Of a stretch of DNA of 50,243 bases, positions 1 to 41,027 are shown one piece after another. The notes below the pieces were generated by a model that saw only the letters and a list, made by a program, of their open reading frames with translations, was not told the origin of the DNA and ran no database searches. How positions within the stretch are numbered: position 1 is the first letter of the stretch; every line of letters starts with the position of its first letter. Source of the DNA: a virus; the IMG/VR virus record IMGVR_UViG_3300024432_001677, positions 1-50,243 of that record; one strand, written 5' to 3'. The position numbers were made by a program, and so were the translations under genes.

Positions 1-2
1 TT

Positions 3-4551: not shown

Positions 4552-4560
4552 GGATTAGTA

Positions 4561-6125: not shown

Positions 6126-7093
6126 AAAAAGCATTGGTTTGTGGTGCAGGTGGTTTTATCGGAAGCCATCTTGTAAAGAGGTTGAAGAAAGAAAAGTTTT
6201 GGGTACGCGGAGTGGATTTAAAATACCCGGAATTTAGTGAAACTTTTGCAGATGATTTTGTAATTGGGGATTTGAGAGATATAGCTATCTGTCAAAGAGT
6301 ACTAGGTTATCCTTTTGATGAGGTCTATCAACTTGCTGCGGATATGGGCGGTGCCGGATATATTTTTACTGGCGAACATGATTCACAAGTGATACACAAT
6401 TCTGCGATGATAAACCTTAATATAGTGGATATTGCGAGCAAGGTAGAAGTAAAGAAGGTATTCTATTCATCTTCAGCTTGTGTCTACCCCGGATATAATC
6501 AACTCGATTCTGATAATCCTAAGTGTTCAGAAGATTCTGTATATCCAGCTGCACCTGATAGTGAATATGGCTGGGAGAAACTTTTTAGTGAAAGGTTGTA
6601 TCTTGCTTACAATCGTAATCAAGGTTTGCCGGTCCGAATTGCACGTTTCCATAACATTTTTGGTCCAGAAGGGTCATGGAATAATGGAAAAGAAAAAGCC
6701 CCCGCAGCACTATGTAGAAAAATTGCTGAAGTGGTAAATGATAGTTTTATAGAGATTTGGGGGGATGGAGAACAAACCCGCTCGTTCTTATATATTGATG
6801 AGTGCCTTGATGGCATTCGCAAACTTATGGATTCAGAAGTTACCTATCCACTTAACATAGGTTCTGAAGAAATGATAAGTATTAATGAACTTGCAAAACT
6901 TATTGCAAAGATTGCTGGTAAGAAAATTTCTATAAAGAACATCCCAGGTCCATTAGGTGTTCGGGGAAGAAATTCAGATAATCATTTGATTTATAGGAAA
7001 CTTGGCTGGAGACCATCGAGACCTCTTAAGGAAGGACTCGTGAAAACATATGGTTGGATTAAGGAACAAGTAAATAATGAAGCAACAAGTTAA
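6122..7093 (+). CDS. gme: GDP-mannose 3,5-epimerase
   Basis: An extended short-chain dehydrogenase of 323 residues. The N-terminus has the NAD-binding GAGGFIGSHL. The catalytic segment SSSACVYPGYNQL is followed by YGWEK, giving the S/T...YxxxK triad. The remainder matches plant-type GDP-mannose 3,5-epimerase closely by memory: AADMGGAGYIF, RFHNIFGPEGSW, KEKAPAALCRK, WGDGEQTRSFLYIDEC, NIGSEEMISINE, IPGPLGVRGRNSDN. These enzymes convert GDP-D-mannose to GDP-L-galactose or L-gulose. The product is a plausible donor for the GT11-like enzyme two genes downstream. Confidence 0.9.
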   Translation: MKKALVCGAGGFIGSHLVKRLKKEKFWVRGVDLKYPEFSETFADDFVIGDLRDIAICQRVLGYPFDEVYQLAADMGGAGYIFTGEHDSQVIHNSAMINLNIVDIASKVEVKKVFYSSSACVYPGYNQLDSDNPKCSEDSVYPAAPDSEYGWEKLFSERLYLAYNRNQGLPVRIARFHNIFGPEGSWNNGKEKAPAALCRKIAEVVNDSFIEIWGDGEQTRSFLYIDECLDGIRKLMDSEVTYPLNIGSEEMISINELAKLIAKIAGKKISIKNIPGPLGVRGRNSDNHLIYRKLGWRPSRPLKEGLVKTYGWIKEQVNNEATS

Positions 7094-7748
7094 AAGTTAT
7101 TTGAAAAGTCTTGTTGTTCCTAATTCTATCATAATTGAAGTTGGAGCACATTATGGTGAGGATACTGTAGGATTTTTAAGAAGTTTGAATCCCTCACGTA
7201 TTCATTGTTTTGAGCCTGATCCAAGAAATATTTTTATTTTTAAGAAATATGTTAAAGATCCTAACATTTTTCTATACGAATGTGCAGTTTCAGACAAAGA
7301 TGAGAAACAAGTTGATTTTCATTTATCTTATATTGCTAACTTCAAACCAAGATTGTTTGATAAGTATCATTGGATTGACAAAAAAGAATATGTTAATATG
7401 AAACTCAATGCTTCTGGATCTTCTTCTTTTGAAAAAGGAAGAGATATGCAAGTGTTGAATACAGTAAAGATTGATACTATACGTATTGATACCTGGGCGG
7501 AAAAAAACAAAATAAAGCACGTTGATTTTATGTGGATTGATGTTCAAGGTGCAGAGAAAAAAGTTGTAGAAGGATTTGGAAAACTTAGTATTAACTGTGT
7601 GTGGATAGAGTTTGGTGAAAATACCTATAAAAGTTACTTAGGAAGGCAGGAAACCATAGACTTATTTTCAACTATCGGTTTTGAAGTAGACGAAAAATAT
7701 TCAGACAAAGACTCAAAAGGTGATTTACTGTTTTGGAAGAGAAAATGA
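7077..7748 (+). CDS. FkbM-family methyltransferase
   Basis: The 223-residue protein shows the FkbM order: IIEVGAHYGEDTVGFL (SAM motif I), IHCFEPDPRN, YECAVSDKD, ASGSSSF, IDTIRIDTWAEKN and VDFMWIDVQGAEKKVVEGF. FkbM enzymes O-methylate hydroxyls on sugars or polyketides. It overlaps the epimerase gene by 17 bp and the next gene by ATGA, so it is likely co-translated with the L-galactose branch. Confidence 0.9.
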   Translation: MKQQVKSYLKSLVVPNSIIIEVGAHYGEDTVGFLRSLNPSRIHCFEPDPRNIFIFKKYVKDPNIFLYECAVSDKDEKQVDFHLSYIANFKPRLFDKYHWIDKKEYVNMKLNASGSSSFEKGRDMQVLNTVKIDTIRIDTWAEKNKIKHVDFMWIDVQGAEKKVVEGFGKLSINCVWIEFGENTYKSYLGRQETIDLFSTIGFEVDEKYSDKDSKGDLLFWKRK

Positions 7749-8623
7749 AAACCCCCGTCGTTCATGTTACTTTTACTAATGGTATTGGAAACAATCTTTT
7801 TCAATTTATATATGCGAGATTGTTAGCAGAAAGCCATTTTGGAGTTGTATCTACTTCGATACCTGATGATGCAAAATATGTCATAAATGATTTTATGAGG
7901 TTAGGTATAAATCTTGAAAAACATCCTGCTTCTGGTTTGCCAGTTGTAGGGATAGATGACAAGAATGCATCGACAAAATTTTATACAAAGGAGTTTGATC
8001 ATAATGATTTTAAGTTAAGAGGATACTTTGAAGATTATAGGCTATATGTAAACTGGCGGGATCAAATAAAATCTTGGTTTACAACAGTTGAAAAAACTAA
8101 CAAAAATGACCTTGTCTTTCATTTAAGATTAGGAGATAGGTTATTCAGAAAAGTTCATTACCAACCAGGTATGAAAGTCAATCCATCTCAATATGTAAAT
8201 GCGATTAATAGGTTTGAATTTGACCGTTTACACGTTGTAACAGATATGAAATCCTGGGAGGTCTTAACTGAAGAAAACTTGTCAAAAATGTCTTTTCATA
8301 CACTTGGAATTGGAGGAAAAGAACTTCTTGGTACAGATAAATTTGCTGGCTATCAAATAGCAGTTGATTATTTTAACTCTGTTTTCGAAATGCTGAACAA
8401 ATTTGAACCAGTTGTGCGATACAATCAATCGTGTTCAAACGACATTAACTATATAAGGTCATTTAATAAGATTCTTTTTCAACATAGTACTTTAGCTTGG
8501 TGGGCAGCATTTATTAGTTGTGCACGTGAAGTTGGTGTTTACGGACCATGGAGACCAGCAAAAGGAAAAAGAAATAAGAATTTAAGTCAAGTAGGTTTAC
8601 CTGGATGGTTTACTTGGTTTTAA
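7745..8623 (+). CDS. GT11-like alpha-1,2-fucosyltransferase family protein
   Basis: The ATG at 7745 overlaps the previous stop as ATGA and follows a GGAAG ribosome site. The 292-residue protein opens with VTFTNGIGNNLFQFIYARLL, the GT11 N-terminal signature. It has LVFHLRLGDR, the GDP-fucose-binding HxRxGD motif. Near the end is QHSTLAWWAAFI, equivalent to the family's SSFSWWAA. GT11 enzymes use GDP-L-fucose. GDP-L-galactose differs only by a 6-hydroxyl, so this enzyme may transfer L-galactose made by the adjacent epimerase. That substrate is inference. Confidence 0.82.
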   Translation: MKTPVVHVTFTNGIGNNLFQFIYARLLAESHFGVVSTSIPDDAKYVINDFMRLGINLEKHPASGLPVVGIDDKNASTKFYTKEFDHNDFKLRGYFEDYRLYVNWRDQIKSWFTTVEKTNKNDLVFHLRLGDRLFRKVHYQPGMKVNPSQYVNAINRFEFDRLHVVTDMKSWEVLTEENLSKMSFHTLGIGGKELLGTDKFAGYQIAVDYFNSVFEMLNKFEPVVRYNQSCSNDINYIRSFNKILFQHSTLAWWAAFISCAREVGVYGPWRPAKGKRNKNLSQVGLPGWFTWF

Positions 8624-8641
8624 AATATTAAGAAAGAGAAG

Positions 8642-9304
8642 ATGAATATTATCGAATGTAAAAGATTGAGTAACCTTCCTAAGCAGGAATGGATGAAAAT
8701 CAAAGCCCTTCATGTACCTACAGAACAAGCAAAAACCTACAACTTTGAGGATCGATTACATAATTTAATTGACGTAAAGAAGGTGTTTGATGAGAAAAAG
8801 ATACCTCTTTGGTTGGATGGTGGAACACTTCTTGGTGCATACCGAGATAATAATTGGATACCATATGATAATGATATAGACTTGGCTATTCTTGAAGAAG
8901 ATTGGAAGAGTCAAGTGAAAGAATTGCGTAAGGTGTTTATTAATCTCGGATTTATTGTTCGACCAAGTATTTATCCAAAATTTTCTCGACTTACTTTGTT
9001 TAGAGAAAAAGAACAGATAGGTCTTTTTGGATGGTCTTTAGACCCTTCATACGAGGGAGGAGAATATAGGGTACGTCCAACAAATAGAATACCTATAAAG
9101 TTTTTTGAAAACAAAGAGTATATTGAATTTAAAGGAATGTCTTTTTGTGTTTTGAATCCAGTTGAAGAATACCTTGTTTGGCGATATGGTGAAAAATGGC
9201 AAATTCCGTTGGATTACCATGAAACAACTGAATGGACATCTGGAAATATGTGTAGAGATAGAAAACATTGGAAGAAAATCATGGGGAGCTATACTAAAAA
9301 ATGA
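8642..9304 (+). CDS. LicD/fukutin-type phosphotransferase
   Basis: The 220-residue protein contains IPLWLDGGTLLGAYRDNNWIPYDNDIDLAIL, the nucleotidyltransferase-fold core of LicD and fukutin proteins. It carries the GGTLLG loop and the DxDxD metal site. LicD enzymes add phosphocholine or related phospho-alcohols from a CDP carrier onto glycans. Downstream lies a remnant of a nucleotidyltransferase and then an intact cytidylyltransferase, which fits a CDP-alcohol donor pathway. The exact alcohol is unknown. Confidence 0.85.
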   Translation: MNIIECKRLSNLPKQEWMKIKALHVPTEQAKTYNFEDRLHNLIDVKKVFDEKKIPLWLDGGTLLGAYRDNNWIPYDNDIDLAILEEDWKSQVKELRKVFINLGFIVRPSIYPKFSRLTLFREKEQIGLFGWSLDPSYEGGEYRVRPTNRIPIKFFENKEYIEFKGMSFCVLNPVEEYLVWRYGEKWQIPLDYHETTEWTSGNMCRDRKHWKKIMGSYTKK

Positions 9305-9354
9305 ATACTAAACATGCGATTATTTTAGCAGCGGAAGTAGAAAGATATGAATAG
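9301..9354 (+). pseudogene. Remnant of nucleotidyltransferase N-terminus
   Basis: A 17-codon reading frame, MNTKHAIILAAEVERYE, starts with an ATGA overlap on the LicD stop. The HAIILAA stretch is the usual opening of sugar-1-phosphate or choline-phosphate nucleotidyltransferases (AIILAAGxGxR). After the glutamate the similarity stops and a TAG follows. The rest of the gene seems to have been deleted, leaving only the coupled start. Confidence 0.6.
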
Positions 9355-9364
9355 GACGTGAAAA

Positions 9365-9772
9365 ATGATTCTTGTATATTCGTACTATGTGTTAGATATG
9401 GTTCATAAAGGTCATCTTGAGATGCTTCGTAATGCGAAAGCGATAGCAGGTCCAGATGGGCGATTGATTGTAGGTATTCTAACTGATAAAGCAGCAATGG
9501 AGAAGAAGTCTAAGCCAATACTGTGCTTTGAAGAAAGGATAGAACTGGCTCGTAGTATAAGATGTGTTGATTTAGTGGTTGCTCAGAAAATGTATTCACC
9601 GCTTGAAAATATTCAGAATATCAAACCAGATGTACTATTAGAAAGTGATAGTCACGAATCGGAGTCAGATGTTATACACTTGATGTACGAGTTAGGAGGA
9701 AGGATAATAACTATTCCTTATTTTCCTGAACATTCTTCAACTCAAATTAAGAAACGGATAAGAAAGAATTGA
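9365..9772 (+). CDS. Cytidylyltransferase family protein (TagD/Pcyt2-like)
   Basis: The 135-residue protein shows VLDMVHKGHLEMLRNAK with a HxGH nucleotide-binding motif. LIVGILTDKAAMEKK and CFEERIELARSIRCVDLVV follow, matching small CTP-dependent cytidylyltransferases such as glycerol-3-phosphate or phosphoethanolamine forms. The expected ISTT-type C-terminal motif is replaced by HSSTQIKKRI. Next to LicD it probably makes the CDP-activated alcohol. Confidence 0.85.
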   Translation: MILVYSYYVLDMVHKGHLEMLRNAKAIAGPDGRLIVGILTDKAAMEKKSKPILCFEERIELARSIRCVDLVVAQKMYSPLENIQNIKPDVLLESDSHESESDVIHLMYELGGRIITIPYFPEHSSTQIKKRIRKN

Positions 9773-9776
9773 GAAA

Positions 9777-10169
9777 ATGGATAGTCACAAAAAATCAATG
9801 TTTAAAAGTTTGATTTGGCGTATCATTGGAGTGTTTTGGTTAGCCGGAATAACTTGGTTATTCACTCGAAACTGGATTACAGTTTCAGTCATAACTTTCA
9901 CACATCATGCTATTTTTCTTGTTGTATTCTATCTACATGAAAGGGCATGGATAAAATCTAAATTAAAACCAAAAATTAAGTATGCTATAAAGGCTTTGAC
10001 TTATGAAGTTATTTTGGGGAATATTATTCTCGGGTTGACTACTTACTTTATTACGGGTGATGTAAAACAAATGACTGCAGTAACTTTGACATATATCCAA
10101 TCAAAATTAGTTCTATACTTCTTCTACGATTGGTTTTGGAGCGGATCGTTTACTATGAGAAAAAAGTAA
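9777..10169 (+). CDS. DUF2061 membrane protein
   Basis: The 130-residue protein has about four hydrophobic segments arranged as two similar modules. The first contains MFKSLIWRIIGVFWLAGITWL and FYLHERAW, hallmarks of DUF2061. The second ends with FFYDWFW. It is likely in the inner membrane. DUF2061 proteins often sit near sulfate or sugar-nucleotide activation genes, but their biochemical role is not established. Confidence 0.8.
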   Translation: MDSHKKSMFKSLIWRIIGVFWLAGITWLFTRNWITVSVITFTHHAIFLVVFYLHERAWIKSKLKPKIKYAIKALTYEVILGNIILGLTTYFITGDVKQMTAVTLTYIQSKLVLYFFYDWFWSGSFTMRKK

Positions 10170-10198
10170 TCCACTTGAAGAAATGAGATCAGTTTATT

Positions 10199-11206
10199 AT
10201 GTTTACAAATAAAACACTTCTAATCACAGGAGGTACTGGGTCTTTTGGAAATGCAGTATTGCGGCATTTCTTAGATTCTGATTTGAAAGAGATTCGGATA
10301 TTTAGCCGTGATGAAAAGAAACAACATGATATGCGTTGTTTATATCAGAATGACAAGATAAAATATTGTATAGGCGACGTTCGAGATTATAGTAGTATCC
10401 GTTCAGCTTTGCAAGAAGTGGATTATGTATTTTGTGCAGCCGCACTAAAACAAGTACCTTCTTGTGAATTTTATCCATTAGAAGCAGTTAAGACGAATGT
10501 GTTAGGAGTTGAAAATACGCTAAATGCTGCTATAGATAACGGCGTTCAAAAGGTAATAGTGTTGAGTACAGATAAAGCAGTCTATCCAATTAATGCTATG
10601 GGCATGACCAAAGCGATTATGGAAAAGATTGCTGTGGCCAAATCACGTGTTTTAGGAGATAGGAAACCTACTATCTGCATAACTCGATATGGTAATGTTA
10701 TGGCTTCACGAGGATCTGTCATACCATTATTTATTGGTCAGATGGAATCTAGTAAACCAATAACAATTACAGATGGGAATATGACTCGTTTTATGATGTC
10801 TCTAGACGAGGCTGTAGATTTAGTTATGTTTGCTTTTAATCAAGGAGCTCCTGGAGATACATTTGTACAACAAGCTCCGGCAGCTACAATTGAACAACTA
10901 GCTTGTATTTTAAAGAAAATATTCAATTCAAACAGTGAAATCATAACAATGGGAACCCGTCATGGTGAAAAGAAACACGAATCTTTACTAAATCGACAAG
11001 AAATGTCTCGAGCATCTAATATTCCTCCGTACTATAAAATTCCGTCAGATGCGAGAGGATTAGATTATAACAAGTACTTTGCAAAGGGTCAGATTCAATC
11101 AGACTACGAAGATTACACATCAAAAAATACTCATCAACTTACTGATCAAGAGTTAGAAAAAATGTTGTTAAATCTTGATTATATTCAAAATAGGATGGAG
11201 ATGTAA
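10199..11206 (+). CDS. UDP-GlcNAc 4,6-dehydratase/5-epimerase (CapE/FnlA-like)
   Basis: A 335-residue SDR enzyme. LLITGGTGSFGNAVLRHFL binds NAD, and EIRIFSRDEKKQHDM, AAALKQVPSCEFYPLEAVKTNV, LSTDKAVYPINAMGMTKA and TRYGNVMASRGSVIPLF match the CapE/FnlA group. The C-terminal DYNKYFAKG...DYTSKNT region favours this group over PseB. The reaction would start UDP-L-FucNAc-type synthesis, but partner genes for the later steps are not visible. The dehydratase may instead feed another 6-deoxy-HexNAc route. No clear ribosome site precedes the ATG. Confidence 0.85.
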   Translation: MFTNKTLLITGGTGSFGNAVLRHFLDSDLKEIRIFSRDEKKQHDMRCLYQNDKIKYCIGDVRDYSSIRSALQEVDYVFCAAALKQVPSCEFYPLEAVKTNVLGVENTLNAAIDNGVQKVIVLSTDKAVYPINAMGMTKAIMEKIAVAKSRVLGDRKPTICITRYGNVMASRGSVIPLFIGQMESSKPITITDGNMTRFMMSLDEAVDLVMFAFNQGAPGDTFVQQAPAATIEQLACILKKIFNSNSEIITMGTRHGEKKHESLLNRQEMSRASNIPPYYKIPSDARGLDYNKYFAKGQIQSDYEDYTSKNTHQLTDQELEKMLLNLDYIQNRMEM

Positions 11207-11207
11207 A

Positions 11208-11930
11208 ATGATTGAAGAATACTTTGACAAATTTAAAGGTGAAGCAGCATTTGTATTGGGAGCTGGTCCATCACTTCGAAAACTGACACCAGATCTTATT
11301 TCTCGTATGCCAGTTACGATTGCCATGAATTCAGCTATTCTCAAAGTTCCAGATCCTCATTTTTATATAAGTACTGATCCACATGTGACTTTATGTAAAT
11401 CTTGGGAAACGGTGATAAATTCTACTTGTATAATAGTTCAAAGTGGTGCTAGTTTTAGGTATTATGAAAAGTTTACAGGAATAAATCCTATTGCAAAGAT
11501 TTCTAAGAGTAGAATTTTAAAATTTTATCGGGACAAAGAAAATGGTTTGGATATGATAATGAAGAAGACAGGTCTGCATATACATGGATCATCTTCAGCT
11601 TTTTCTGCTGTTCATTTTGCATATTTATTAGGTTGTAGCCCAATAATACTAATAGGGTGTGATTGTTGTTGTGAAGATGGCAAAAAACATTTCTTTGATT
11701 TTCCGGGCCAACCTCAAGAGAGTCATAAATCTGAGTATAGGAAATTTGTGTCAGTTCCTCATCCATGGCGTGGTGATACCAGTAAACATTTAGATTCCCA
11801 TTTAAAAGGTTGGAGAAAACTTAGACAGCAGAATCCAAATGTAAATATTATTAATGCATCAGGAGGTCTTATTGATGTTTTTCCTATGATGAGTATCGAT
11901 GAGGTACTTGAAAGATACTGTAAAAAATGA
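11208..11930 (+). CDS. Maf/DUF115-like (6-HMP pyrophosphokinase-fold) protein
   Basis: The ATG at 11208 has GGATGGAG upstream. The 240-residue protein has FVLGAGPSLRK near the N-terminus, DPHFYISTDP, and HGSSSAFSAVHFAYLLGCSPIILIGCDCCC. This is the pattern of DUF115/MptE-like and Maf motility-accessory proteins. In Campylobacter-type clusters Maf proteins act in transferring nonulosonic acids to flagellin. Here the neighbours (dehydratase, CMP-sugar synthetase-like, NeuB) match that arrangement, so a glycan-transfer role on a virion or host protein is plausible. Confidence 0.75.
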   Translation: MIEEYFDKFKGEAAFVLGAGPSLRKLTPDLISRMPVTIAMNSAILKVPDPHFYISTDPHVTLCKSWETVINSTCIIVQSGASFRYYEKFTGINPIAKISKSRILKFYRDKENGLDMIMKKTGLHIHGSSSAFSAVHFAYLLGCSPIILIGCDCCCEDGKKHFFDFPGQPQESHKSEYRKFVSVPHPWRGDTSKHLDSHLKGWRKLRQQNPNVNIINASGGLIDVFPMMSIDEVLERYCKK

Positions 11931-11951
11931 AAGTATCTTTTGGAGATTAGT

Positions 11952-12749
11952 ATGGGTAAAAAGAGAGTTGGGATAGCTGTGTATGGGTTAATGAGTTCCA
12001 CACGCATTAAGAAAAAGCCTATACAAATGCTTTGTGGTCGTGAAATGATAGCCCACCAGATAGATAGGCTCAAAACAGCAAAAATTCCAGAGGTTATCAT
12101 ACTTTGTACGTCTAACTTGCCACGGGATAGGGTTCTAATTGAATTAGCTGAGAGAGAAAATATTGAGGTGTTTGCCGGTCCTGAAGATGATTTGCTTGCT
12201 AGATTGCTGCAGGCCGCAGAGGAGTATGGTGTTGATTATATTACTACCTCCTCTGCTGATAATCCTTTAACATGTGCTGAACATATAGATGTTTCGATAA
12301 AACATATAATTGAAAATGATCTTGATTATGTAGATGGAGAAGGTGTTTTACCTATTGGTATATATGTCAAAGTGGTTAAAATCTCTGCTCTAAATCTTGC
12401 CTATCAAATAAAAGATGAAACGGATACTAGTTTTTACTCAGCATACTTTACAAAAACTGAAGGTTTATTTCGGACAGGTAAAATTAAAGCTTTGCCATGG
12501 GTTAAAAATATAGACTATCGTCTCACCGTTGATACACCAAAAGATTTTGAACTTGCAACCAGAATTTTTGAAAAACTATATCATTCGGGAGAGATTTTTC
12601 CAATTTCCGAGGCGCTTATCTATTTACAGCAGAATCCTGAAATTAGGAATATTAATAGTCAGGTACAACAGATACCAAATCATGTTTTTCCTTTTAAGCT
12701 AAAGAAAGAATTTGAAAAGTACTTATCAAAGAGTTATTGTAATGCCTAA
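11952..12749 (+). CDS. SpsF/NeuA-like cytidylyltransferase
   Basis: The ATG at 11952 follows GGAG by 6 bp. The 265-residue protein has VGIAVYGLMSSTRIKKKPIQMLCGREMIAHQIDRL, a variant of the xARxxSxRLPGK signature of CMP-sugar synthetases. FAGPEDDLLARLLQAAEEYGVDYITTSSADNPLT and VDTPKDFELATRI are typical SpsF blocks. It likely activates an acidic sugar with CTP. The gene overlaps the following radical SAM gene by 8 bp. Confidence 0.8.
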   Translation: MGKKRVGIAVYGLMSSTRIKKKPIQMLCGREMIAHQIDRLKTAKIPEVIILCTSNLPRDRVLIELAERENIEVFAGPEDDLLARLLQAAEEYGVDYITTSSADNPLTCAEHIDVSIKHIIENDLDYVDGEGVLPIGIYVKVVKISALNLAYQIKDETDTSFYSAYFTKTEGLFRTGKIKALPWVKNIDYRLTVDTPKDFELATRIFEKLYHSGEIFPISEALIYLQQNPEIRNINSQVQQIPNHVFPFKLKKEFEKYLSKSYCNA

Positions 12750-14235
12750 TAAAATCTTATTAATTAGACCTGAAAATATATATGACCATTATAACTACCC
12801 GCCTTTGAACCTGATACATCTTGGGTCGAGTCTAAAGTCAAACGGTTATGATGTAAAAATAATCAACTGTGGATTAGAAAAGGATTTCTTGTCAAGTATT
12901 CGGGATAATCTAAAGGATTGTTTGCTTGTAGGAATAACTTTGTTGACTTCAGAAGTTCCTGGTGCATATAAAGTAGTCAAATTCGTAAAAGAAAACTCAG
13001 TTGTTCCTATCGTTGTAGGAGGTTGGCATTGTACCCTATTTCCTAATCAGATGGTAGATTGTGAATATATAGATTATGTTGTTATTGGTGGAGGTGAAGA
13101 ATATATAGTAGAAATAGCTGACGCGCTTAGAGAAAACAAGACTATGCCTAGTAAGATATTTCAAAAAAGATGTGTAAATCTGAATAAGCTCCCAATTCCC
13201 GATTATGAATTAGATGCGAATATAGAGAACCATATAACAACCTTTCTCACCGATAAATTAGGTGAGTATGTTTCTCACCCGATACGATGGCTTCCGTATG
13301 AGACCAGTCGAGGATGTCCTTCACAATGCACGTTTTGTTGCAACGTGGTTACGGGAAATACCCGATATCGAAAGAAGAGCGCCAAGAAAGTCGTTTCTGA
13401 AATAGAGTATATAGTTAAGAAATACAATATCACCCACTTGAAAATTCTCGACGATAACTTCTTTCCTGATATTGAAAGGGTCAGAGAAGTATGTAAAGGG
13501 ATAATAAAAAAGGATTTGCACTTTACGTGGGACGGAGAGTGCCGTGCGGATTACTTTAAAGATGGAATGTTAGATGATGAAACATTAGACCTCGCAAAAA
13601 GATCAGGCTTGGTTCAGCTCACCATTGGTATTGAATCTGGGTCGTTTACGACATTAATGATTATGAAAAAGGGCATAACGCCCAATCAAGGTGAATTTGC
13701 GATCAAAAAATGCAATGACTATGGAATAATAGCTCGATGTTCTTTTATTATTGAAATACCAGGAGAAACTATAGAGGATATAAAGAAAACGATATCTTTC
13801 GTTAACCACTTAAGGAAGCAGTACCCTTGGTTTATTTGTGGTATCCAGATATTTAGACCGTATCCAAAATGTGAACTTACAGAAAACTTGATTGAAAAAG
13901 GTTATCTCCTGGAACCTAAGAGATTTGTTGATTGGTCAGATAATGAAATTCTTAAGATTTATACTGGGGTACACGATATTAGACCATGGCAAATTGACAG
14001 CAAATATTCAACCCTAGCTGCCCACTATCAAGGTGTGGAATCAGGTTTTATAAAGAAACATATGTTAGATCGGAAGGTTGATATTCTAATCAACAAGATT
14101 TTTATGGGTATTGCAAGAATAAGAAACAAAGTCAGTTGTTATAGATTTCCAGTGGACAGGAAAATGTACTTAGCATTCCAAACCAATTTTTATAAAAGAA
14201 TGAGAAAGTTAGAAATAGCTAAGAAGTTAAACTAG
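12742..14235 (+). CDS. B12-binding radical SAM protein
   Basis: The ATG at 12742 is inside the previous gene's last codons. Residues 1-130 form a cobalamin-binding-like Rossmann domain (YPPLNLIHLGSSL, VGGWHCTLFPNQMV, VVIGGGEEYIVEIADAL). The radical SAM core has SRGCPSQCTFCC (CX3CX2C) near residue 195, then ILDDNFFPDIERV and TIGIESGS. Members of this architecture methylate or rearrange unactivated carbons. In this cluster it may modify a sugar, which is inference from position. Confidence 0.85.
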   Translation: MPNKILLIRPENIYDHYNYPPLNLIHLGSSLKSNGYDVKIINCGLEKDFLSSIRDNLKDCLLVGITLLTSEVPGAYKVVKFVKENSVVPIVVGGWHCTLFPNQMVDCEYIDYVVIGGGEEYIVEIADALRENKTMPSKIFQKRCVNLNKLPIPDYELDANIENHITTFLTDKLGEYVSHPIRWLPYETSRGCPSQCTFCCNVVTGNTRYRKKSAKKVVSEIEYIVKKYNITHLKILDDNFFPDIERVREVCKGIIKKDLHFTWDGECRADYFKDGMLDDETLDLAKRSGLVQLTIGIESGSFTTLMIMKKGITPNQGEFAIKKCNDYGIIARCSFIIEIPGETIEDIKKTISFVNHLRKQYPWFICGIQIFRPYPKCELTENLIEKGYLLEPKRFVDWSDNEILKIYTGVHDIRPWQIDSKYSTLAAHYQGVESGFIKKHMLDRKVDILINKIFMGIARIRNKVSCYRFPVDRKMYLAFQTNFYKRMRKLEIAKKLN

Positions 14236-14250
14236 AAATGAAGGATACTA

Positions 14251-15306
14251 ATGTGGTTTAATAGCCCAAATAAGGTTTATTTTATTGCGGAGTGTGGTCA
14301 AAATCATAATGGAAGTGTGAAAATAGCAAAGCAAATGATTGATATTGCAGCTATGCCAGTATTTGATCACTTCTCTGGAAAAATGCTACCGGGTATTGAT
14401 GCGGTAAAGTTTTGTAAACGTGATTTGAATGAAGAGTTTACTGATGAGATGGCTAATCAATCTTACTCGTCTCCTCATTCTTTTGGTTCTACATATTTGG
14501 AACACCGCAAAGTTTTGGAATTATCAGTAGACCAGCATCGAGAGCTTGAGCAATACGCCCATTCCAAAGGACTGGATTTTATTGAGACATTATGCTCACC
14601 TAGCTGTATAGATATACTTGGTAAAGTTGAAGTAGATGTTGTAAAAATTGCCTCTCGTGATGTTACTAATATTCCTTTACTTCAGAAGATAGGAGGATCC
14701 GGAATTCCAGTAATGGTATCCTCTGGAATGTCATCTTTAAAAGAATTAGAATTAGCTGTAAAGATTCTTTTGGGCATCCCTAAACAATTAGCTATTTTAC
14801 ATTGTGTTTCCGAGTATCCGGCCCATTGTGAAAATCTTAACCTTCGTTCAATTCTATTTCTAAAGGAGCAATTTCCTAATTATAGTATAGGTTATTCAGA
14901 CCATTCAGTAGGTATTATGATTCCATCTGCGGCTGTAGCCCTTGGCGCGACTATTATTGAAAAACATATTACTTTAAATCGAACGATGAAGGGTTCGGAC
15001 CAAGGCGGTTCTTTAGGACCAGAAGGATTATGGCGTACTGTTCGTGATATTCGTAATCTAGAAAAATCTCTTGGGAGGAAAACTAAAGAGATTAGTCCGG
15101 CGGTGTTGTCTTGGAAAAAGAGATTGGCCCGCTCGTTAGCTTTGCTAGTACCGTTATCGAGGGGGCAGATAGTATTAAAGGACCACTTTTGTATGAGAAG
15201 TCCTGGGATAGGTTTGTCCTGGGATGAGCGACGGTTAGTTATTGGTAAAATGGCGAAGAGGAATATTCCTGCAAATTCTTTAGTTAAAAAGGATGATTTT
15301 GAATGA
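14251..15306 (+). CDS. neuB: NeuB-family nonulosonic acid synthase
   Basis: The 351-residue protein has the NeuB barrel: VYFIAECGQNHNGSVKIAKQMID, DAVKFCKRD, CSPSCIDIL, VVKIASRDVTNIPLL, MVSSGMSS, LHCVSEYPA, GYSDHSVGI and IEKHITLNRTMKGSDQGGSLGPEGL. It ends in a SAF (antifreeze-like) domain from about residue 290. It condenses phosphoenolpyruvate with a hexosamine or hexose to make a nine-carbon acid. It overlaps the KdsC-like gene by 4 bp. Confidence 0.93.
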   Translation: MWFNSPNKVYFIAECGQNHNGSVKIAKQMIDIAAMPVFDHFSGKMLPGIDAVKFCKRDLNEEFTDEMANQSYSSPHSFGSTYLEHRKVLELSVDQHRELEQYAHSKGLDFIETLCSPSCIDILGKVEVDVVKIASRDVTNIPLLQKIGGSGIPVMVSSGMSSLKELELAVKILLGIPKQLAILHCVSEYPAHCENLNLRSILFLKEQFPNYSIGYSDHSVGIMIPSAAVALGATIIEKHITLNRTMKGSDQGGSLGPEGLWRTVRDIRNLEKSLGRKTKEISPAVLSWKKRLARSLALLVPLSRGQIVLKDHFCMRSPGIGLSWDERRLVIGKMAKRNIPANSLVKKDDFE

Positions 15307-15848
15307 ATAAAGTTGATTTCAAGAAAAAGTGTCAAGCTATAAAATTGGTTGTTGTGGATGTTGATGGCGTTCTAACTGATGGTGGAGTTTATTATAGTAA
15401 GAACGATACTGTGATGAAGAAATTCAACATTCGCGATGGCGCAGGGGTAGCTTTGCTACAACTATCTGAAATTCGGGTTGGAATTCTTACTACAGACACC
15501 TTCGGATTATCTAGTAAAAGATGCTGGGATATTGGAGTAGACTTTATATTTGACCGGATTAAGGATAAGCTAATTTGCTTAAACGATTATCTTCTGAAAG
15601 AGAATTATAACAATCAGGAAGTCGCCTATATCGGGGATGAAATTAACGATTACTGTCTATTAAGTAACGTCGGGGTATTTTTTGCGCCGGCGGATGCTAA
15701 TATCGTTATTAAGGATAAAGCTGATTATGTTCTTCAAACTTTAGGTGGGCAGGGTGTTCTAAGAGAAGTGGCCCAAATTTTGCTCGATGCCCAAGGATGT
15801 TATCTTCAAGTTATTGACGCGTACACCAAAAATAATTGCAATAGATAG
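15303..15848 (+). CDS. KdsC-like HAD phosphatase
   Basis: The 181-residue protein shows VVDVDGVLTDGGVYYS (HAD motif I), FNIRDGAGVALLQ, GILTTDT, DRIKDKL and AYIGDEINDYCLL (motif IV). This is the small C0-type phosphatase of the KdsC/YrbI family. The ATGA overlap with neuB suggests the synthase product is a 9-phosphate needing dephosphorylation, as in KDN-type routes. KDO or another acid cannot be ruled out. Confidence 0.88.
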   Translation: MNKVDFKKKCQAIKLVVVDVDGVLTDGGVYYSKNDTVMKKFNIRDGAGVALLQLSEIRVGILTTDTFGLSSKRCWDIGVDFIFDRIKDKLICLNDYLLKENYNNQEVAYIGDEINDYCLLSNVGVFFAPADANIVIKDKADYVLQTLGGQGVLREVAQILLDAQGCYLQVIDAYTKNNCNR

Positions 15849-16507
15849 TGGAGGATTGGTCAACGAAACAGGAATATTTTATATTATGTTCTCAAGGATG
15901 TTGTGGTTCAGTACATGTACGAGATTGTCTACAGCAACCGGGGATAAATATGAGACAAACTTGGATGTCAATGTCTAAACTAAATATAATGTTTCATAAT
16001 CAACATTTTAGGAATCCCCCTAAAAGTTTCAATCGTAAAGATTACAAAGTGTTATACATGTATGGAGATCCGAGAAATATATTACTAAGTTCTCTCAATA
16101 GAGTAAGGCCGGGACCAAAACCAGGAGTAAACCGTTGGAATTGGCATCTCTATTGTAAATATATGCAAGCCGATGTCGAATACTTTGGGGATTCTGAGGA
16201 AAGAACTATAGATCGACTTCTTCAAGATAACTATGATCCTCTCAGGCTGGAAGATCATTTTTTAAGTTGGCTAAATGTGAATGCTGAATATCCGTTAATG
16301 CTGTTGAAATACGAGGCACTTGAAGAACCAAAAACGTTTCAGCACGTATTGGATTTCTTCGAAGTAGAAGGAGATTATAGTTATGGTTGGAGACCGCGGG
16401 AAACATCCTATCTGAAATTGACTTTAGAGCAACAAGTCCAAATTACTGAACTATTTAAGGATTTACTAAAAATACAAGCAGAAATTCCTCCTGTTTACAT
16501 ACGGTAG
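15848..16507 (+). CDS. Sulfotransferase-like protein
   Basis: A GTG start at 15848 overlaps the preceding TAG. The 219-residue protein has a P-loop-like YFILCSQGCCGSVHVRDCL at the N-terminus. VLYMYGDPRNILLSSLNR resembles the 3'-phosphate loop of sulfotransferases (RdPrdvavS). YEALEEPKTFQHVLDFFEV resembles the family's C-terminal helix. The match is partial and no strong ribosome site is visible. Sulfation of the glycan is inferred from location. Confidence 0.55.
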   Translation: MEDWSTKQEYFILCSQGCCGSVHVRDCLQQPGINMRQTWMSMSKLNIMFHNQHFRNPPKSFNRKDYKVLYMYGDPRNILLSSLNRVRPGPKPGVNRWNWHLYCKYMQADVEYFGDSEERTIDRLLQDNYDPLRLEDHFLSWLNVNAEYPLMLLKYEALEEPKTFQHVLDFFEVEGDYSYGWRPRETSYLKLTLEQQVQITELFKDLLKIQAEIPPVYIR

Positions 16508-16550
16508 GAAAATTTGTATTACAATTTTCATTATTGGTTGGGGAAACAAA

Positions 16551-16610
16551 ATGAAATTGAATAAGATTAAATGTCCTCTTTGTAACCTGGAAAAGAAAAC
16601 ATACCGGTAA
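16551..16610 (+). pseudogene. Remnant with N-terminal zinc-knuckle motif
   Basis: A 19-codon frame, MKLNKIKCPLCNLEKKTYR, follows a GGTTGGGGA site by about 7 bp and then stops. A CPxC knuckle at the N-terminus is common in zinc-binding methyltransferases of glycan clusters, so this may be a cut-down gene. It could also be a genuine micropeptide. Confidence 0.35.
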
Positions 16611-16651
16611 ACTCATAAGAGTATTGATTTAAGAATTGGAGTGGTAATATA

Positions 16652-17413
16652 ATGAAAGATTTCCTTAAAAATATTGAAAAAACCAGGAATACTGATAAAC
16701 AGTTTGATTACTACCAGAAACTAAATGATTTCATTGAAAATAAAAGTACCAGTATGATGGAGAAAATGTCTTGTTTTCCCGTGTATGCATCTCGTCAGGT
16801 TATTACCTCTTTCATTGAAAAATATGAAATATATAAACTTTGTATAAATATTCCTGGAAGTATCGTTGAGTGCGGAGTAGCCGGTGGTAGAGGATTGATG
16901 GCTTTTGCCCATCTAAGTTCTATCTTTGAGCCATATCATTATACCCGGAAGATAATTGGGTTTGATACCTTTGAAGGATTTCCGGAGATTTCGGATAAAG
17001 ATAAAACGAGCGCTGCCTATCATATGAAAAAAGGAGGGCTTCATTTTGATTCATATGAAATGCTATCTAAAGCCATTAAATTATATGATATGAATCGTAC
17101 TCTAGGGCATTTGAAAAAGGTCAAACTTATCAAAGGCGATATTAGTGAGACTTTTCCAAAGTATCTTAAGAAAAATCCAGAGCTTGTTATAGCACTTCTT
17201 TACTTGGACTTAGATTTGTATAAACCAACTTTGGATACCTTAAAGTTGGTTGTTAGCAGGGTTCCTAAGGGCGGTATTATAGCCTTTGATGAATTAAACC
17301 ATCCTGACTATCCTGGTGAGACCTTTGCAGTGATGGAAGCCATTGGTATAAATAATCTTCGTTTGAAAAGATTGGACATTAGTCCTATGTTATCCTACGC
17401 AATTTTAGAATAA
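16652..17413 (+). CDS. TylF/macrocin-O-methyltransferase-like protein
   Basis: The 253-residue protein has GSIVECGVAGGRGLMAFA (SAM motif I), IIGFDTFEGFPE, LIKGDISETFPKYL, ALLYLDLDLYKPTLDTL and GGIIAFDELNHPDYPGET. This order is characteristic of TylF sugar O-methyltransferases, including the DxD and DE metal-binding residues. It has a GGAGTGG ribosome site. It probably methylates a hydroxyl on the glycan made by this cluster. Confidence 0.9.
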   Translation: MKDFLKNIEKTRNTDKQFDYYQKLNDFIENKSTSMMEKMSCFPVYASRQVITSFIEKYEIYKLCINIPGSIVECGVAGGRGLMAFAHLSSIFEPYHYTRKIIGFDTFEGFPEISDKDKTSAAYHMKKGGLHFDSYEMLSKAIKLYDMNRTLGHLKKVKLIKGDISETFPKYLKKNPELVIALLYLDLDLYKPTLDTLKLVVSRVPKGGIIAFDELNHPDYPGETFAVMEAIGINNLRLKRLDISPMLSYAILE

Positions 17414-23617: not shown

Positions 23618-23692
23618 TAATGAGAGGAGAGCAAGCCTTCTTTAGCGTTTTCTTAGAGAAAAGCATATCATTGATAGCATCTCCTCTCATTA
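23618..23692 (-). ncRNA. Dual-guide-like structured RNA unit E1
   Basis: Read on the minus strand this 75-nt unit has a perfect 13-bp outer stem (TAATGAGAGGAGA). Inside, ATGCT leads into variable strand ATCAATGATA, then TGCT and a 6-bp hairpin closing at ACGCT. The second variable strand AAAGAAGGCT follows, then TGCT re-enters the outer stem. Both variable strands are 10 nt. The unit lies 11 nt after tRNA-His. Confidence 0.75.
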
Positions 23693-23703
23693 ATCCCAAA
23701 ATA

Positions 23704-23776
23704 GGTGACTGACGGGATTTGAACCCGCTCCCACAGGATCACAACCTGTTATGCTACCTGATTACACCACAGCCAC
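23704..23776 (-). tRNA. tRNA-His(GTG)
   Basis: A 73-nt cloverleaf with acceptor GTGGCTG/CAGTCAC and anticodon loop TTGTGAT closed by ACAGG/CCTGT. The T loop is TTCAAAT and position 73 is C, as in bacterial tRNA-His. The base at -1 is T rather than the usual encoded G, so 5' maturation may differ. Confidence 0.88.
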
Positions 23777-23778
23777 AA

Positions 23779-23849
23779 CGGGTCGGGAAGGAATCGAACC
23801 CTCGGCCGCGGGGTTGGAACCCGTGATGTTACCACTACACCACCGACCC
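23779..23849 (-). tRNA. tRNA-Trp(CCA)
   Basis: A 71-nt cloverleaf with acceptor GGGTCGG/CCGACCC and discriminator G, as in tRNA-Trp. The anticodon loop TTCCAAC is closed by CGGG/CCCG with an A-C mismatch at 27-43. A glycine TCC reading would need a worse stem, so Trp is preferred. Confidence 0.75.
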
Positions 23850-23854
23850 AATGA

Positions 23855-23925
23855 ATAGAAGGAAAGCAGAGTGCTCTTAGCATTCCTGTAAAAGGAAGCA
23901 CGTTTTGTAAAGCATCTCCTCCCAC
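23855..23925 (-). ncRNA. Dual-guide-like structured RNA unit E2
   Basis: This 71-nt unit lies directly between the DEDD-protein gene and tRNA-Trp. Its 10-11 bp outer stem uses several G-U pairs that exist only in the minus-strand transcript, so it argues for function as RNA on that strand. The variable strands are TTACAAAACG and AAGAGCACTC, each 10 nt, each bounded by ATGCT and TGCT. The inner hairpin is TTCCT/AGGAA with a TTTAC loop. Confidence 0.75.
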
Positions 23926-23929
23926 ATCA

Positions 23930-24862
23930 TCACTTCTCTACTTCTATTCCTCTTTTCCACATCTCATCCAAAAACTTTGTCTGAACAAACTTCTTAGCAA
24001 ATGCGCCCACTTTCGCAGGTCGCCAATCAGTATGTCTTTTCTTATAATACACTTTCATATCATCATACAACTTCCGCCAGGGTTGAGTTCTATTTCTGAT
24101 AATCTGGTCTGCAAAATTGTAAAGAGCCTGTTTCAGATACCTATTGTAATCAGGATTATCTTTTTTTGTTCTCATTCCAGCAAAATGACGCAGCGAATAT
24201 TTACTTGTGAATCTAGAAAACCTTCTGATACTTCCGATAATCCCTCCGGCTGTAACAGCACCGACTCCTTTTATTCCACTCAAAAGATTGATCCAAAGCG
24301 GATGTTTTTCTACTAGTTTGAGAAGCTGTCCACTTATCAGGTTAATCTCTTTTCCAAGAGCTTCAATAGTAGTTTTCCTCTTCCCTATTATCTTTGCTAC
24401 TGCTTTTTCTGATATGAGTAGTTCCATCTTGTTCCTAAAAGCGTGCAGTTGATTTTTCTTTCGAGTACTATCCTTAACAAGTTTGTTGTACTCTCTTGAA
24501 AGGATGCAAATTCTTAGAGTTAGTTTATCATCTTCTTGATACTCATAAAATTCTTGAGGTTGTTCTTTTGATAGCGAACCAATGACCTTTACATCACTCT
24601 CATCTGTTTTTTGAATTTTTAACTCTACTCTAAAGTCATGAACTTTTTTACCAGGAGTAGTAAAGACTTTATGGCCATGTTTTAGTGCCAGCAACTTAAA
24701 GGTATCACCTCCACCCTCTTCGGTATAGAAAGAATGTTTGCCAGAGAGTTTGTCAAAAAACTTATCAAAGGCTTCTCTTGTAGGAGCAATGCTTTTAAGT
24801 TTTTCAGTATTAATGTTGTAGATTTGAAATTTCTTTCGTACTGCCCAGTCTATTGCAAACAT
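23930..24862 (-). CDS. IS110-family-like DEDD (RuvC-fold) protein, candidate RNA-guided nuclease
   Basis: The 310-residue protein keeps the IS110 N-terminal DEDD catalytic set: D5 in FAIDWA, E48/E49 in YTEEGGG, then D87 and D90 in KTDESD. A long helical linker follows. The C-terminal transposase_20-like part has GIKGVGAVTAGGIIGSI and RRFSRFTSKYSLRHFAGM. Where IS110 transposases carry a catalytic serine before the GNxxLR block, this protein reads RTKKDNPDYNRYLKQALYNFA with no serine. It may therefore cut or bind DNA without transposing. Four dual-guide-like RNAs flank it. A GAAAGG site precedes the ATG. An ordinary degenerate IS110 transposase is the main alternative. Confidence 0.85.
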   Translation of the reverse strand: MFAIDWAVRKKFQIYNINTEKLKSIAPTREAFDKFFDKLSGKHSFYTEEGGGDTFKLLALKHGHKVFTTPGKKVHDFRVELKIQKTDESDVKVIGSLSKEQPQEFYEYQEDDKLTLRICILSREYNKLVKDSTRKKNQLHAFRNKMELLISEKAVAKIIGKRKTTIEALGKEINLISGQLLKLVEKHPLWINLLSGIKGVGAVTAGGIIGSIRRFSRFTSKYSLRHFAGMRTKKDNPDYNRYLKQALYNFADQIIRNRTQPWRKLYDDMKVYYKKRHTDWRPAKVGAFAKKFVQTKFLDEMWKRGIEVEK

Positions 24863-24882
24863 TCTTTACCTTTCAAAAGATA

Positions 24883-24949
24883 GGAAGAGGAGCATCTTAT
24901 CATTAGCATTACATAGATAGTAAGCAAAAAGACTTCAGCATCCTCTTCC
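24883..24949 (-). ncRNA. Dual-guide-like structured RNA unit E3
   Basis: A 67-nt unit 20 bp upstream of the DEDD-protein start. The outer stem is GGAAGAGGA/TCCTCTTCC (9 bp). The variable strands are GAAGTCTTTT and AATGATAAGA, both 10 nt between ATGCT and TGCT. The inner hairpin is TTAC/GTAA with a TATCTAT loop. Its stem sequences differ from the other units while the pairing is kept. Confidence 0.75.
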
Positions 24950-24977
24950 AGTTGAGTTACTTCAGTAAATAGAAGAA

Positions 24978-25044
24978 TAGGAGAAGAACAGTTGAACCTT
25001 AGCATCTCATAATGAGAGCACTCCTGCCTTAGTATCTTCTCCTA
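24978..25044 (-). ncRNA. Dual-guide-like structured RNA unit E4
   Basis: A 67-nt unit 8 bp downstream of tRNA-Leu. The outer stem is TAGGAGAAGA/TCTTCTCCTA (10 bp). The variable strands are AAGGCAGGAG and AAGGTTCAAC. Here the first boundary is ATACT instead of ATGCT and its partner is TGTT instead of TGCT. The two changes restore an A-U for a G-C pair. The inner hairpin is TCTCA/TGAGA. Confidence 0.75.
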
Positions 25045-25052
25045 CACCATAA

Positions 25053-25134
25053 TGGCCCAGGCAGGACTCGAACCTGCATGCCCGAAGGCAGTAGTTTCTA
25101 AGACTACCGTGTCTGCCAGTTCCACCACTGAGCC
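25053..25134 (-). tRNA. tRNA-Leu(TAG)
   Basis: An 82-nt class II tRNA with long variable arm. The acceptor is GGCTCAG/CTGGGCC with A73. Anticodon loop CTTAGAA is closed by GTAGT/ACTAC. The T arm is GCAGG-TTCGAGT-CCTGC. Confidence 0.92.
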
Positions 25135-25145
25135 ATAATATCTTT

Positions 25146-26474: not shown

Positions 26475-26547
26475 TAAGCCTGACAGGACTCGAACCTGTG
26501 ACTAACAAATTAGAATTTGTTACTCTATCCACCTTGGATACAGGCTA
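26475..26547 (-). tRNA. tRNA-Arg(TCT)-like, aberrant D arm and anticodon loop
   Basis: The acceptor pairs at 2-7 but has T-T at 1-72; the T arm ACAGG-TTCGAGT-CCTGT is normal. The anticodon region AACAAATT-CT-AATTTGTT is a perfect even-spaced palindrome. The loop is therefore 6 or 8 nt, not 7. By alignment to bacterial tRNA-Arg the anticodon is TCT; CTA (amber) is the other reading. The D arm is replaced by the hairpin TATCCA-AGG-TGGATA. It may be a pseudo-tRNA. Confidence 0.55.
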
Positions 26548-32016: not shown

Positions 32017-32505
32017 TTATCCTCTACAAACTAATTCTTTCAATCTTTTTGGTTTGTCATCAAAGATAGCTCCCTGATGGCACTCTAAATGAATATTCTT
32101 TCCAATAATTGCAGGATTCTCATATCCATATATCCTTATTAATTTACGAATAGTTTGGACCAATGGTTTATGCTGTTGGCTTAATGCTATTCGCTTCATC
32201 TCGGGTGTTTGCCAATCACAAACTTTTATGTGGCGAGAACCTTTGAAATTTAGTGCTCTATTGAAAACAATACACCAAGTAGGAACACCAAATTTCATAG
32301 CATCGGATAGTGGTTTGTATTTTCTTGTAGCATCAACTATTGTAATCTCTCCACATTGAAGAAGATGGATAACCACTTTGATTGGCATAGCATCTATTCT
32401 GAAGTAGCCATAAGAAGCATGATGTCCGTAGCAACTCTGGAAGTAACAGATATCATCATAGGGTAGGTACGCAAGTCCGTTCATCATATTTGCAAGCCGT
32501 ATCAT
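32017..32505 (-). CDS. Hypothetical phage protein, 162 aa
   Basis: No recognised family. It has alternating hydrophobic segments (IKVVIHLLQCGEITIVDATRKY, VPTWCIVFNRALNFKGSRHIKVCDW) and a basic C-terminus. AGGGGAT lies upstream of the ATG at 32505. Confidence 0.8.
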   Translation of the reverse strand: MIRLANMMNGLAYLPYDDICYFQSCYGHHASYGYFRIDAMPIKVVIHLLQCGEITIVDATRKYKPLSDAMKFGVPTWCIVFNRALNFKGSRHIKVCDWQTPEMKRIALSQQHKPLVQTIRKLIRIYGYENPAIIGKNIHLECHQGAIFDDKPKRLKELVCRG

Positions 32506-40865: not shown

Positions 40866-41027
40866 GTTGAATTTCATAGAGTCAAATTATTATGGGGGAG
40901 ATGTTAGGGATGCAATGCTTCTCTTGCTGAGAATGCTAAAGAGCTTTTGCTCTCCTCCCAGATGGCTCTTAGTAGCTCAGGTAGTGAGAGACCTGCCCAT
41001 CAGCATTTAGAAAAGGTGAGGGAAATT

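What the first reader, a model, noticed from the sequence alone, without database searches (positions are those of the whole stretch)
23618..25044. Candidate RNA-guided system: DEDD (IS110-like) protein with four dual-guide RNA units in a phage tRNA island
Seen: a 310-aa protein with D5/E49/D87/D90 and an IS110-type C-terminal part lies between RNA units E3/E4 upstream and E2/E1 downstream. All four units have an internal loop with two 10-nt variable strands. Known: IS110 elements use bridge/seekRNAs with two-strand guide loops. TIGR-Tas systems use dual-spacer tigRNAs with RuvC-type partners, also in phages. Inference: each unit programs the protein to a split target read on both DNA strands. 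Four different guides beside one gene do not fit a single insertion sequence that needs only its own target and donor guides.
Basis: partly seen in the sequence, partly recalled or inferred. Interest (0 to 1): 0.95.

Follow-up and report, generated by a model that had tools for sequence, protein, structure and literature searches.

The report
Phage dual-guide RNA nuclease, scattered guides
A bacterial virus carries a compact predicted RNA-guided DNA cutter of the recently described TIGR-Tas kind, and in its family the small guide RNAs sit between tRNA genes, far from the nuclease gene, or even inside it, with paired guide halves that appear to read one shared 17-base-pair site.

Summary
Four stem-loop units, plus a fifth found 16 kb away, each carry two 9-nt guides between box C (GCUA) and box D (UGC) motifs; none appears in 30 shuffled windows. 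The 310-aa protein is a Tas protein, not an IS110 transposase: closest solved sequence and fold is TIGR-TasR, it falls in a Tas clade, and it lacks the IS110 catalytic serine. Its RuvC quartet is intact. RNAalifold recovers the unit structure from 16 units, with two-sided changes in 15 of 17 pairs, while the guides are hypervariable. The closest described kind is the 'stem-loop TIGR array' (PMC12045711). Features not found in that paper's main text: units inside the effector's open reading frame (4 of 9 loci), units interleaved with tRNA genes (2), solo units 16-31 kb away (2), and complementary last bases of the two guides in 21/29 units, implying half-targets that share one base pair. Two of five window guides then resemble tRNA genes (E1 T-arm/acceptor, E3 tRNA-Thr anticodon arm). 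Best reading: phage TIGR-TasR, new variant of a known kind. Expression, cleavage and targets are untested.

The parts
23930..24862 (-). tas gene (TasR-like): RuvC (D5,E48,D87,D90) + coiled coil + Nop/Transposase_20-type RNA-binding domain, 310 aa
24977..25044 (-). guide unit E1 (stem-loop tigRNA-like); 9-nt guides A AGGCAGGAG (25021-25029) and B AGGTTCAAC (24991-24999); outer box pair AC/GU is a compensatory change
24881..24950 (-). guide unit E2; A AAGTCTTTT (24927-24935), B ATGATAAGA (24895-24903)
23855..23924 (-). guide unit E3; A TACAAAACG (23901-23909), B AGAGCACTC (23869-23877)
23620..23689 (-). guide unit E4; A TCAATGATA (23666-23674), B AAGAAGGCT (23634-23642)
25052..25135 (-). tRNA-Leu(UAG), 17 nt upstream of the E1 core; its 3' part AGGTTCGAGTCCTGCCT differs by 2 bases from the reverse complement of the predicted 17-bp E1 target
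23778..23850 (-). tRNA-Trp, 14 nt downstream of the E3 core
23704..23776 (-). tRNA-His, 24 nt upstream of the E4 core

Best explanation
This is a phage-borne TIGR-Tas system of the stem-loop type with a RuvC effector (TasR-like). Each unit is transcribed (here probably within the tRNA transcripts) and folds into an outer stem, an internal loop with two 9-nt guides, and a capping hairpin. A dimer of the Tas protein binds the two box C/D modules. Guide A pairs with one DNA strand and guide B with the other; in this family the two half-targets share the central base pair, giving a 17-bp site 5'-A-(revcomp of B without its first base)-3'. The RuvC domains nick both strands. Shown here: the protein's family, its predicted fold, the intact quartet, the unit architecture with covariation, guide hypervariability, and A10-B10 covariation. 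Inferred from published TasR biochemistry: dimer, DNA pairing and cleavage. Inferred from position only: release of guides by tRNA-processing enzymes. Natural targets are unknown; host or rival-phage tRNA genes are a candidate for E1 and E3.
For: Protein: profile search of the PDB returns only TasR (9mty, 6.9e-15) and TasH (1.2e-6) with significance, no IS110; NCBIfam best hit TIGR_Tas_endo 1.9e-21; AlphaFold model pLDDT 89.8, best fold match TasR 9mty E 1e-13 ahead of IS621; tree puts it in a Tas clade apart from IS110 (100/99), inside a six-member family (97/98), and the IS110 SG motif is absent. RNA: 5 units, 0 in shuffles; RNAalifold on 16 units gives the expected structure, 15/17 pairs with two-sided changes; units picked by their outer half alone have paired inner boxes 15/15 versus 15% expected. 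Guides are variable at positions 2-10; at a homologous site in L072 and L059 the scaffold is kept and guides match 7/18. A10 complements B10 in 21/29, permutation mean 9.7, 0/2000, and 0/5000 within-locus. L074, a TasR with a textbook 36-nt dual-repeat array, has GCCA-N9-TGC, the same box logic.
Against: No RNA-seq, pull-down or cleavage data. NCBIfam TIGR_Tas hit is below its curated cutoff (77 vs 100 bits). No convincing natural target found for most guides. A relative, L080, has lost the first catalytic Asp, so cutting may not be the conserved function. In dual-repeat TasR the authors saw no spacer covariation and L074 shows none (3/12), so the 17-bp rule is specific to this family or has another cause, such as A10 pairing with B10 in the complex.
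Confidence: 0.9

Rival explanations
1. An IS110/IS1111 insertion sequence or its remnant whose bridge/seekRNA guides recombination.
For: Pfam names the protein DEDD_Tnp_IS110 + Transposase_20; IS621 is the second fold match; bridge RNA loops also hold two split guides.
Against: Catalytic Ser/SG motif of the recombinase domain missing in this protein and all family members, present in the IS110 controls; tree separates them 100/99; IS110 HMM 66 bits vs cutoff 140; many single-loop units with different guides instead of one two-loop RNA.
Confidence: 0.03
2. The units act as RNA-guided binders without cutting: a regulator or silencer of host, phage or rival genes (TasA-like use).
For: Relative L080 keeps units but has Asp->Lys at the first catalytic position; nuclease-free TasA is the commonest Tas form (PMC12045711); solo guides placed far away look like snoRNA genes rather than a CRISPR-like array.
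Against: Quartet D5/E48/D87/D90 intact in the window protein and in the other relatives examined.
Confidence: 0.2
3. The units are ordinary hairpins: tRNA-processing signals, attenuators or terminators.
For: They lie beside tRNAs and at gene ends and have strong stems.
Against: Two internal-loop strands of fixed length, box motifs that covary, a conserved A, hypervariable guides, A10-B10 covariation, and in-frame copies inside the tas ORF.
Confidence: 0.02
4. RNA rather than DNA is the target (tRNA or mRNA recognised by the split guides, box C/D style).
For: Nop-type fold; E1 and E3 resemble tRNA sequences.
Against: TaTasR cut DNA and not RNA (PMC12045711); the shared central base is naturally explained by guides reading opposite DNA strands.
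Confidence: 0.08

Closest known systems
TIGR-Tas with stem-loop arrays (Faure et al. 2025, PMC12045711)
   Same: Palindromic outer stem, two 8-12 nt spacers between box C and box D, variable inner sequence, Nop-domain effector, phage context.
   Different: The paper reports these arrays in two clades, illustrated by a nuclease-free TasA and including CPR TasR with inactive RuvC; here the RuvC is intact, units are scattered, next to tRNAs, distant, or (in relatives) inside the tas ORF, and the two guides overlap by one base pair. Its supplement was not available to me.
TIGR-TasR with dual-repeat arrays (TaTasR, PDB 9mty; here L074)
   Same: RuvC + Nop protein, GCCA/GCUA-N9-UGC box logic, 9-nt spacers, best sequence and fold match.
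   Different: No edge/loop repeats or 36-nt periodicity here; no A-B covariation in L074 (3/12).
IS110 family transposases with bridge/seekRNA (IS621, ISCro4)
   Same: Shared fold and domain order, split-guide logic.
   Different: No catalytic serine, separate clade, no transposon, many single-loop guides.
Box C/D snoRNPs (Nop5)
   Same: Nop-type domain, two guides between box motifs, guides scattered as solo genes.
   Different: Weak fold match only (3pla 2.7e-3); different box sequences; predicted active RuvC instead of fibrillarin recruitment.

Membership tests
TIGR-Tas | Effector with Tas-type Nop domain | tested here: met
   PDB profile hit TasR 6.9e-15; fold match 9mty; Tas clade 100/99. 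NCBIfam TIGR_Tas_endo 1.9e-21 but below curated cutoff.
[quoted passage not shown]
   5 units in window, 29 in the family.
TIGR-Tas | Box motifs of the two halves match or covary to suit a symmetric dimer | tested here: met
   L001 has box D UAC in both halves; inner/outer box pairs covary.
TIGR-Tas | RNA processed into small RNAs bound by Tas | not testable with these tools
   needs RNA-seq and pull-down
TIGR-Tas | Guides bind opposite DNA strands | tested here: inconclusive
   A10-B10 complementarity 21/29 fits a shared target base pair but could be a direct A10-B10 pair.
TIGR dual-repeat arrays | Alternating edge and loop repeats at about 36-nt period | tested here: not met
   Window units are separate stem-loops; L074 control shows the real thing.
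TIGR stem-loop arrays | Palindromic stem replaces edge repeat; variable loop replaces loop repeat | tested here: met
   structure
TasR (RuvC-bearing Tas) | Active RuvC with four conserved acids | tested here: met
   D5, E48, D87, D90 conserved; activity itself untested
IS110 | Catalytic Ser in C-terminal Tnp domain | tested here: not met
   SG motif absent
IS110 | Single bridge RNA with target and donor loops flanking the ORF | tested here: not met
   Multiple one-loop units with different guides
Box C/D snoRNP | K-turn/L7Ae and fibrillarin partner | not tested
   not examined; only weak fold similarity

The most novel reading that the evidence does not exclude
The phage uses a compact dual-guide nuclease against tRNA genes of its host or of rival phages while carrying its own diverged tRNAs: with the 17-bp rule, E1 reads a T-arm/acceptor site (2 mismatches from the phage's own adjacent tRNA-Leu, 1 from bacterial tRNA-Leu/Ile genes) and E3 reads a tRNA-Thr(UGU) D-stem/anticodon site; guides are released by tRNA-processing enzymes from the same transcript that supplies the replacement tRNAs.
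Probability: 0.2. Interest if true: 0.95.

Novelty: new variant of a known kind. Interest (0 to 1): 0.77.

Why it matters
TIGR-Tas biology is open on exactly the points this family touches: the TIGR authors state that natural targets, tigRNA maturation and array expansion are unknown. Here (i) guide units are modular solo genes that can sit between tRNAs, 16-31 kb away, or in frame inside the effector gene, so they spread without array repeats; (ii) tRNA neighbours suggest a specific processing route; (iii) guide-guide covariation gives a concrete 17-bp target rule that can be tested in vitro at once; (iv) two guides point to tRNA genes as targets. It also extends stem-loop guides to a predicted active RuvC effector of 310 residues, and shows one relative that lost the catalytic Asp.

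Tried and rejected
Unit pattern in 2.9 M viral contigs: only TGCT microsatellites or chance, apart from L072. Named phages: only weak Nop-only proteins (Peregrin gp187, Morrissey gp42, Mvi-JY20), no stem-loop units found by my scanner. Plasmids: IS110 only. Self-targets in the window or other fetched loci: none beyond chance; an apparent 2-mismatch hit for L073_3524 is the unit's own 3' part. First AlphaFold run with 3 sequences was poor (pLDDT 56) and is not used. L060 and L067 are genuine IS110. E3 17-mer in 198 Bacteroidota genomes: 1 non-tRNA hit vs 5 for the reversed control, i.e. nothing. tRNA resemblance was tested for all units: only E1 and E3 stand out; E2, E4, E5 and the other loci do not. 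Rfam finds only the tRNAs. PADLOC has no model for it.

Full report
WHAT IS THERE. The window is a 50,243-base IMG/VR virus record with DnaB-like helicase, replication initiation, helicase and HNH genes and an 11-tRNA island. ORF 23930-24862(-) encodes 310 aa. Around it on the same strand the order is tRNA-Leu, E1, E2, tas, E3, tRNA-Trp, tRNA-His, E4. Each E unit reads: outer stem, one bulged base, GCU(A), nine variable bases, UGC, small hairpin, bulge, GCU(A), nine variable bases, UGC, outer stem. A custom scan finds these four plus a fifth unit at 40902-40951 on the plus strand, in a gap between genes of that strand, and nothing in 30 shuffled windows. All five units thus lie on the coding strand of their surroundings.

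THE PROTEIN IS A TAS PROTEIN. Pfam calls it IS110-like. A two-sequence profile against all PDB chains gives TasR 9mty (6.9e-15) and TasH (1.2e-6) and no IS110 chain, whereas a true IS110 control retrieves IS621 and ISCro4. NCBIfam's TIGR_Tas_endo is the best family (1.9e-21), though under its cutoff. With a seven-sequence alignment AlphaFold gives pLDDT 89.8; the nearest fold is TasR (E 1e-13), then IS621, TasH and, weakly, box C/D Nop5. A tree of the RNA-binding half separates IS110 (100/99) from all Tas proteins and gathers the window protein with L001, L071, L072, L073 and L077 (97/98); the serine motif of IS110 is present in the IS110 rows and absent from the Tas rows. D5, E48, D87 and D90 are conserved, so an active RuvC is predicted.

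RELATIVES SUPPORT THE UNITS. Protein-guided scans gave L001 (75% identity), L071 (48%), L072 (36%), L073 (34%), L077, L080 and L083 from viral contigs, and L059 from an archaeal MAG contig. Units are found at all of these loci: L071 five, L072 four plus a remote one, L073 six, L059 three, L083 two, L080 two or three, L001 one, L077 three of a compact form with a 6-nt loop. Most of these units score above anything in shuffled sequence; the L080 units are borderline by score and rest also on position and form. On an alignment of 16 units RNAalifold, unprompted, returns the structure drawn by hand, with changes on both sides in 15 of 17 pairs; 93% of cells pair versus 72% in shuffles, and the covariation score is 0.78 versus 0.33. 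Because my scanner demanded paired boxes, I also chose units by the outer half alone: their inner boxes pair in 15 of 15, expected 15%. Inner box pairs are mostly GC/GC in the window, GU/AU in L071 and GA/UC in L073, so both boxes change together. In contrast guide positions 2-10 carry little information. At a homologous site in L072 and L059 the stem, boxes and loop are nearly identical while the guides match at only 7 of 18 positions. That is what guides look like.

UNITS INSIDE THE EFFECTOR GENE. In L072 (three), L073 (three), L059 (three) and L077 (one) units lie in frame inside the tas ORF, as insertions in the RuvC half relative to the window protein, which has none. They have the same boxes as the units outside the gene in the same locus. 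The main text of the TIGR paper does not mention this. An mRNA cut to release such a guide cannot make full-length protein, so guide and protein output would compete; that is inference.

PLACEMENT. In the window three units lie 14-24 nt (core to tRNA end) from tRNA genes, and in L083 a tRNA-Glu sits between two units (16 and 13 nt). With the stems included only a few bases separate most of them. tRNA end-processing could therefore free the guides; this is inference from position in two loci only. Solo units occur 16 kb (E5) and 31 kb (L072's contig, 32381-32424, intergenic) from the gene.

A TARGET RULE. Over 29 units the last base of guide A is complementary to the last base of guide B in 21; random re-pairing gives 9.7 on average and never reached 21 in 2000 trials, nor in 5000 within-locus trials; no other cell of the 9x9 matrix stands out. 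From the TasR cut sites and 3' overhangs reported in PMC12045711 the target geometry is 5'-A-revcomp(B)-3', so A10 and B10 meet at the centre. The simplest reading is that both guides read the same central base pair on opposite strands, giving 17 bp instead of 18. The alternative is that A10 and B10 pair with each other in the complex. A dual-repeat TasR array (L074) shows no such signal, 3 of 12, as the authors also found for theirs.

POSSIBLE TARGETS. With the 17-bp rule E1 (AGGCAGGAGTTGAACCT) is the antisense of a tRNA T-arm plus acceptor strand: two mismatches to the phage's own neighbouring tRNA-Leu, and one mismatch to tRNA-Leu and tRNA-Ile genes among 198 Bacteroidota genomes (7 hits, reversed control 0; two confirmed by ARAGORN). 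E3 is the antisense of a D-stem/anticodon arm of tRNA-Thr(UGU), three mismatches, all between the conserved D-stem end and the anticodon loop, i.e. in the variable anticodon stem. Shuffled guides reach 2 or fewer mismatches in 2 of 4000 and 3 or fewer in 21 of 4000. Both fits need exactly the 17-bp spacing. This was noticed after looking at the guides, the tRNA set is 48 genes, E2, E4 and E5 do not fit, and the E3 search in genomes found nothing, so it remains a lead.

NOVELTY. Dual-guide stem-loop units with a Nop effector are known (PMC12045711), where they accompany TasA and a CPR clade with inactive RuvC. This family differs in having an intact RuvC, in unit placement (inside the gene, among tRNAs, remote) and in the guide-guide covariation. 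I file it as a new variant of a known kind. Main gaps: no expression data, unknown host, and no access to the paper's supplement, which might list this clade.

Noticed in passing
window 26475-26547(-): ARAGORN reports a tRNA with a four-base anticodon call (tcta) next to tRNA-Lys; could be a suppressor, a frameshifting tRNA or a miscall.
   Followed up: no
window 1-17413(+): About 17 kb of glycosyltransferase-, sugar epimerase-, methyltransferase-, sialic-acid-synthase- and radical-SAM-like ORFs (read from the translations, not searched), unusual as a block in a phage; perhaps surface-sugar or capsid/tail decoration genes.
   Followed up: no
L080 5449 (contig G163): Relative with units but first RuvC Asp replaced by Lys (FVKWA): loss of catalysis within the same family.
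   Followed up: partly
L074 6701-7200: A TasR gene followed by a textbook 36-nt dual-repeat TIGR array (at least 12 units) in an IMG/VR contig; some spacers recur in identical or near-identical pairs, suggesting duplication with drift inside the array.
   Followed up: partly
window E1-E5: Guide B (with its leading A) starts with AA in all five units while guide A does not, an asymmetry between the two halves that I cannot explain.
   Followed up: no
L077 6148, 6989, 7044: Compact units with a 6-nt loop (TATCTA, TATTTA, TTCTTA) between two 9-nt guides inside a palindromic stem, a form intermediate between loop repeats and stem-loops.
   Followed up: partly
PHROG 4285 / 2199 (L055, L056, L057): Phage families labelled 'transposase' in PHROGs appear to include Tas-like Nop proteins (Peregrin gp187, Morrissey gp42), so TIGR systems are likely mislabelled in phage annotation.
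   Followed up: partly
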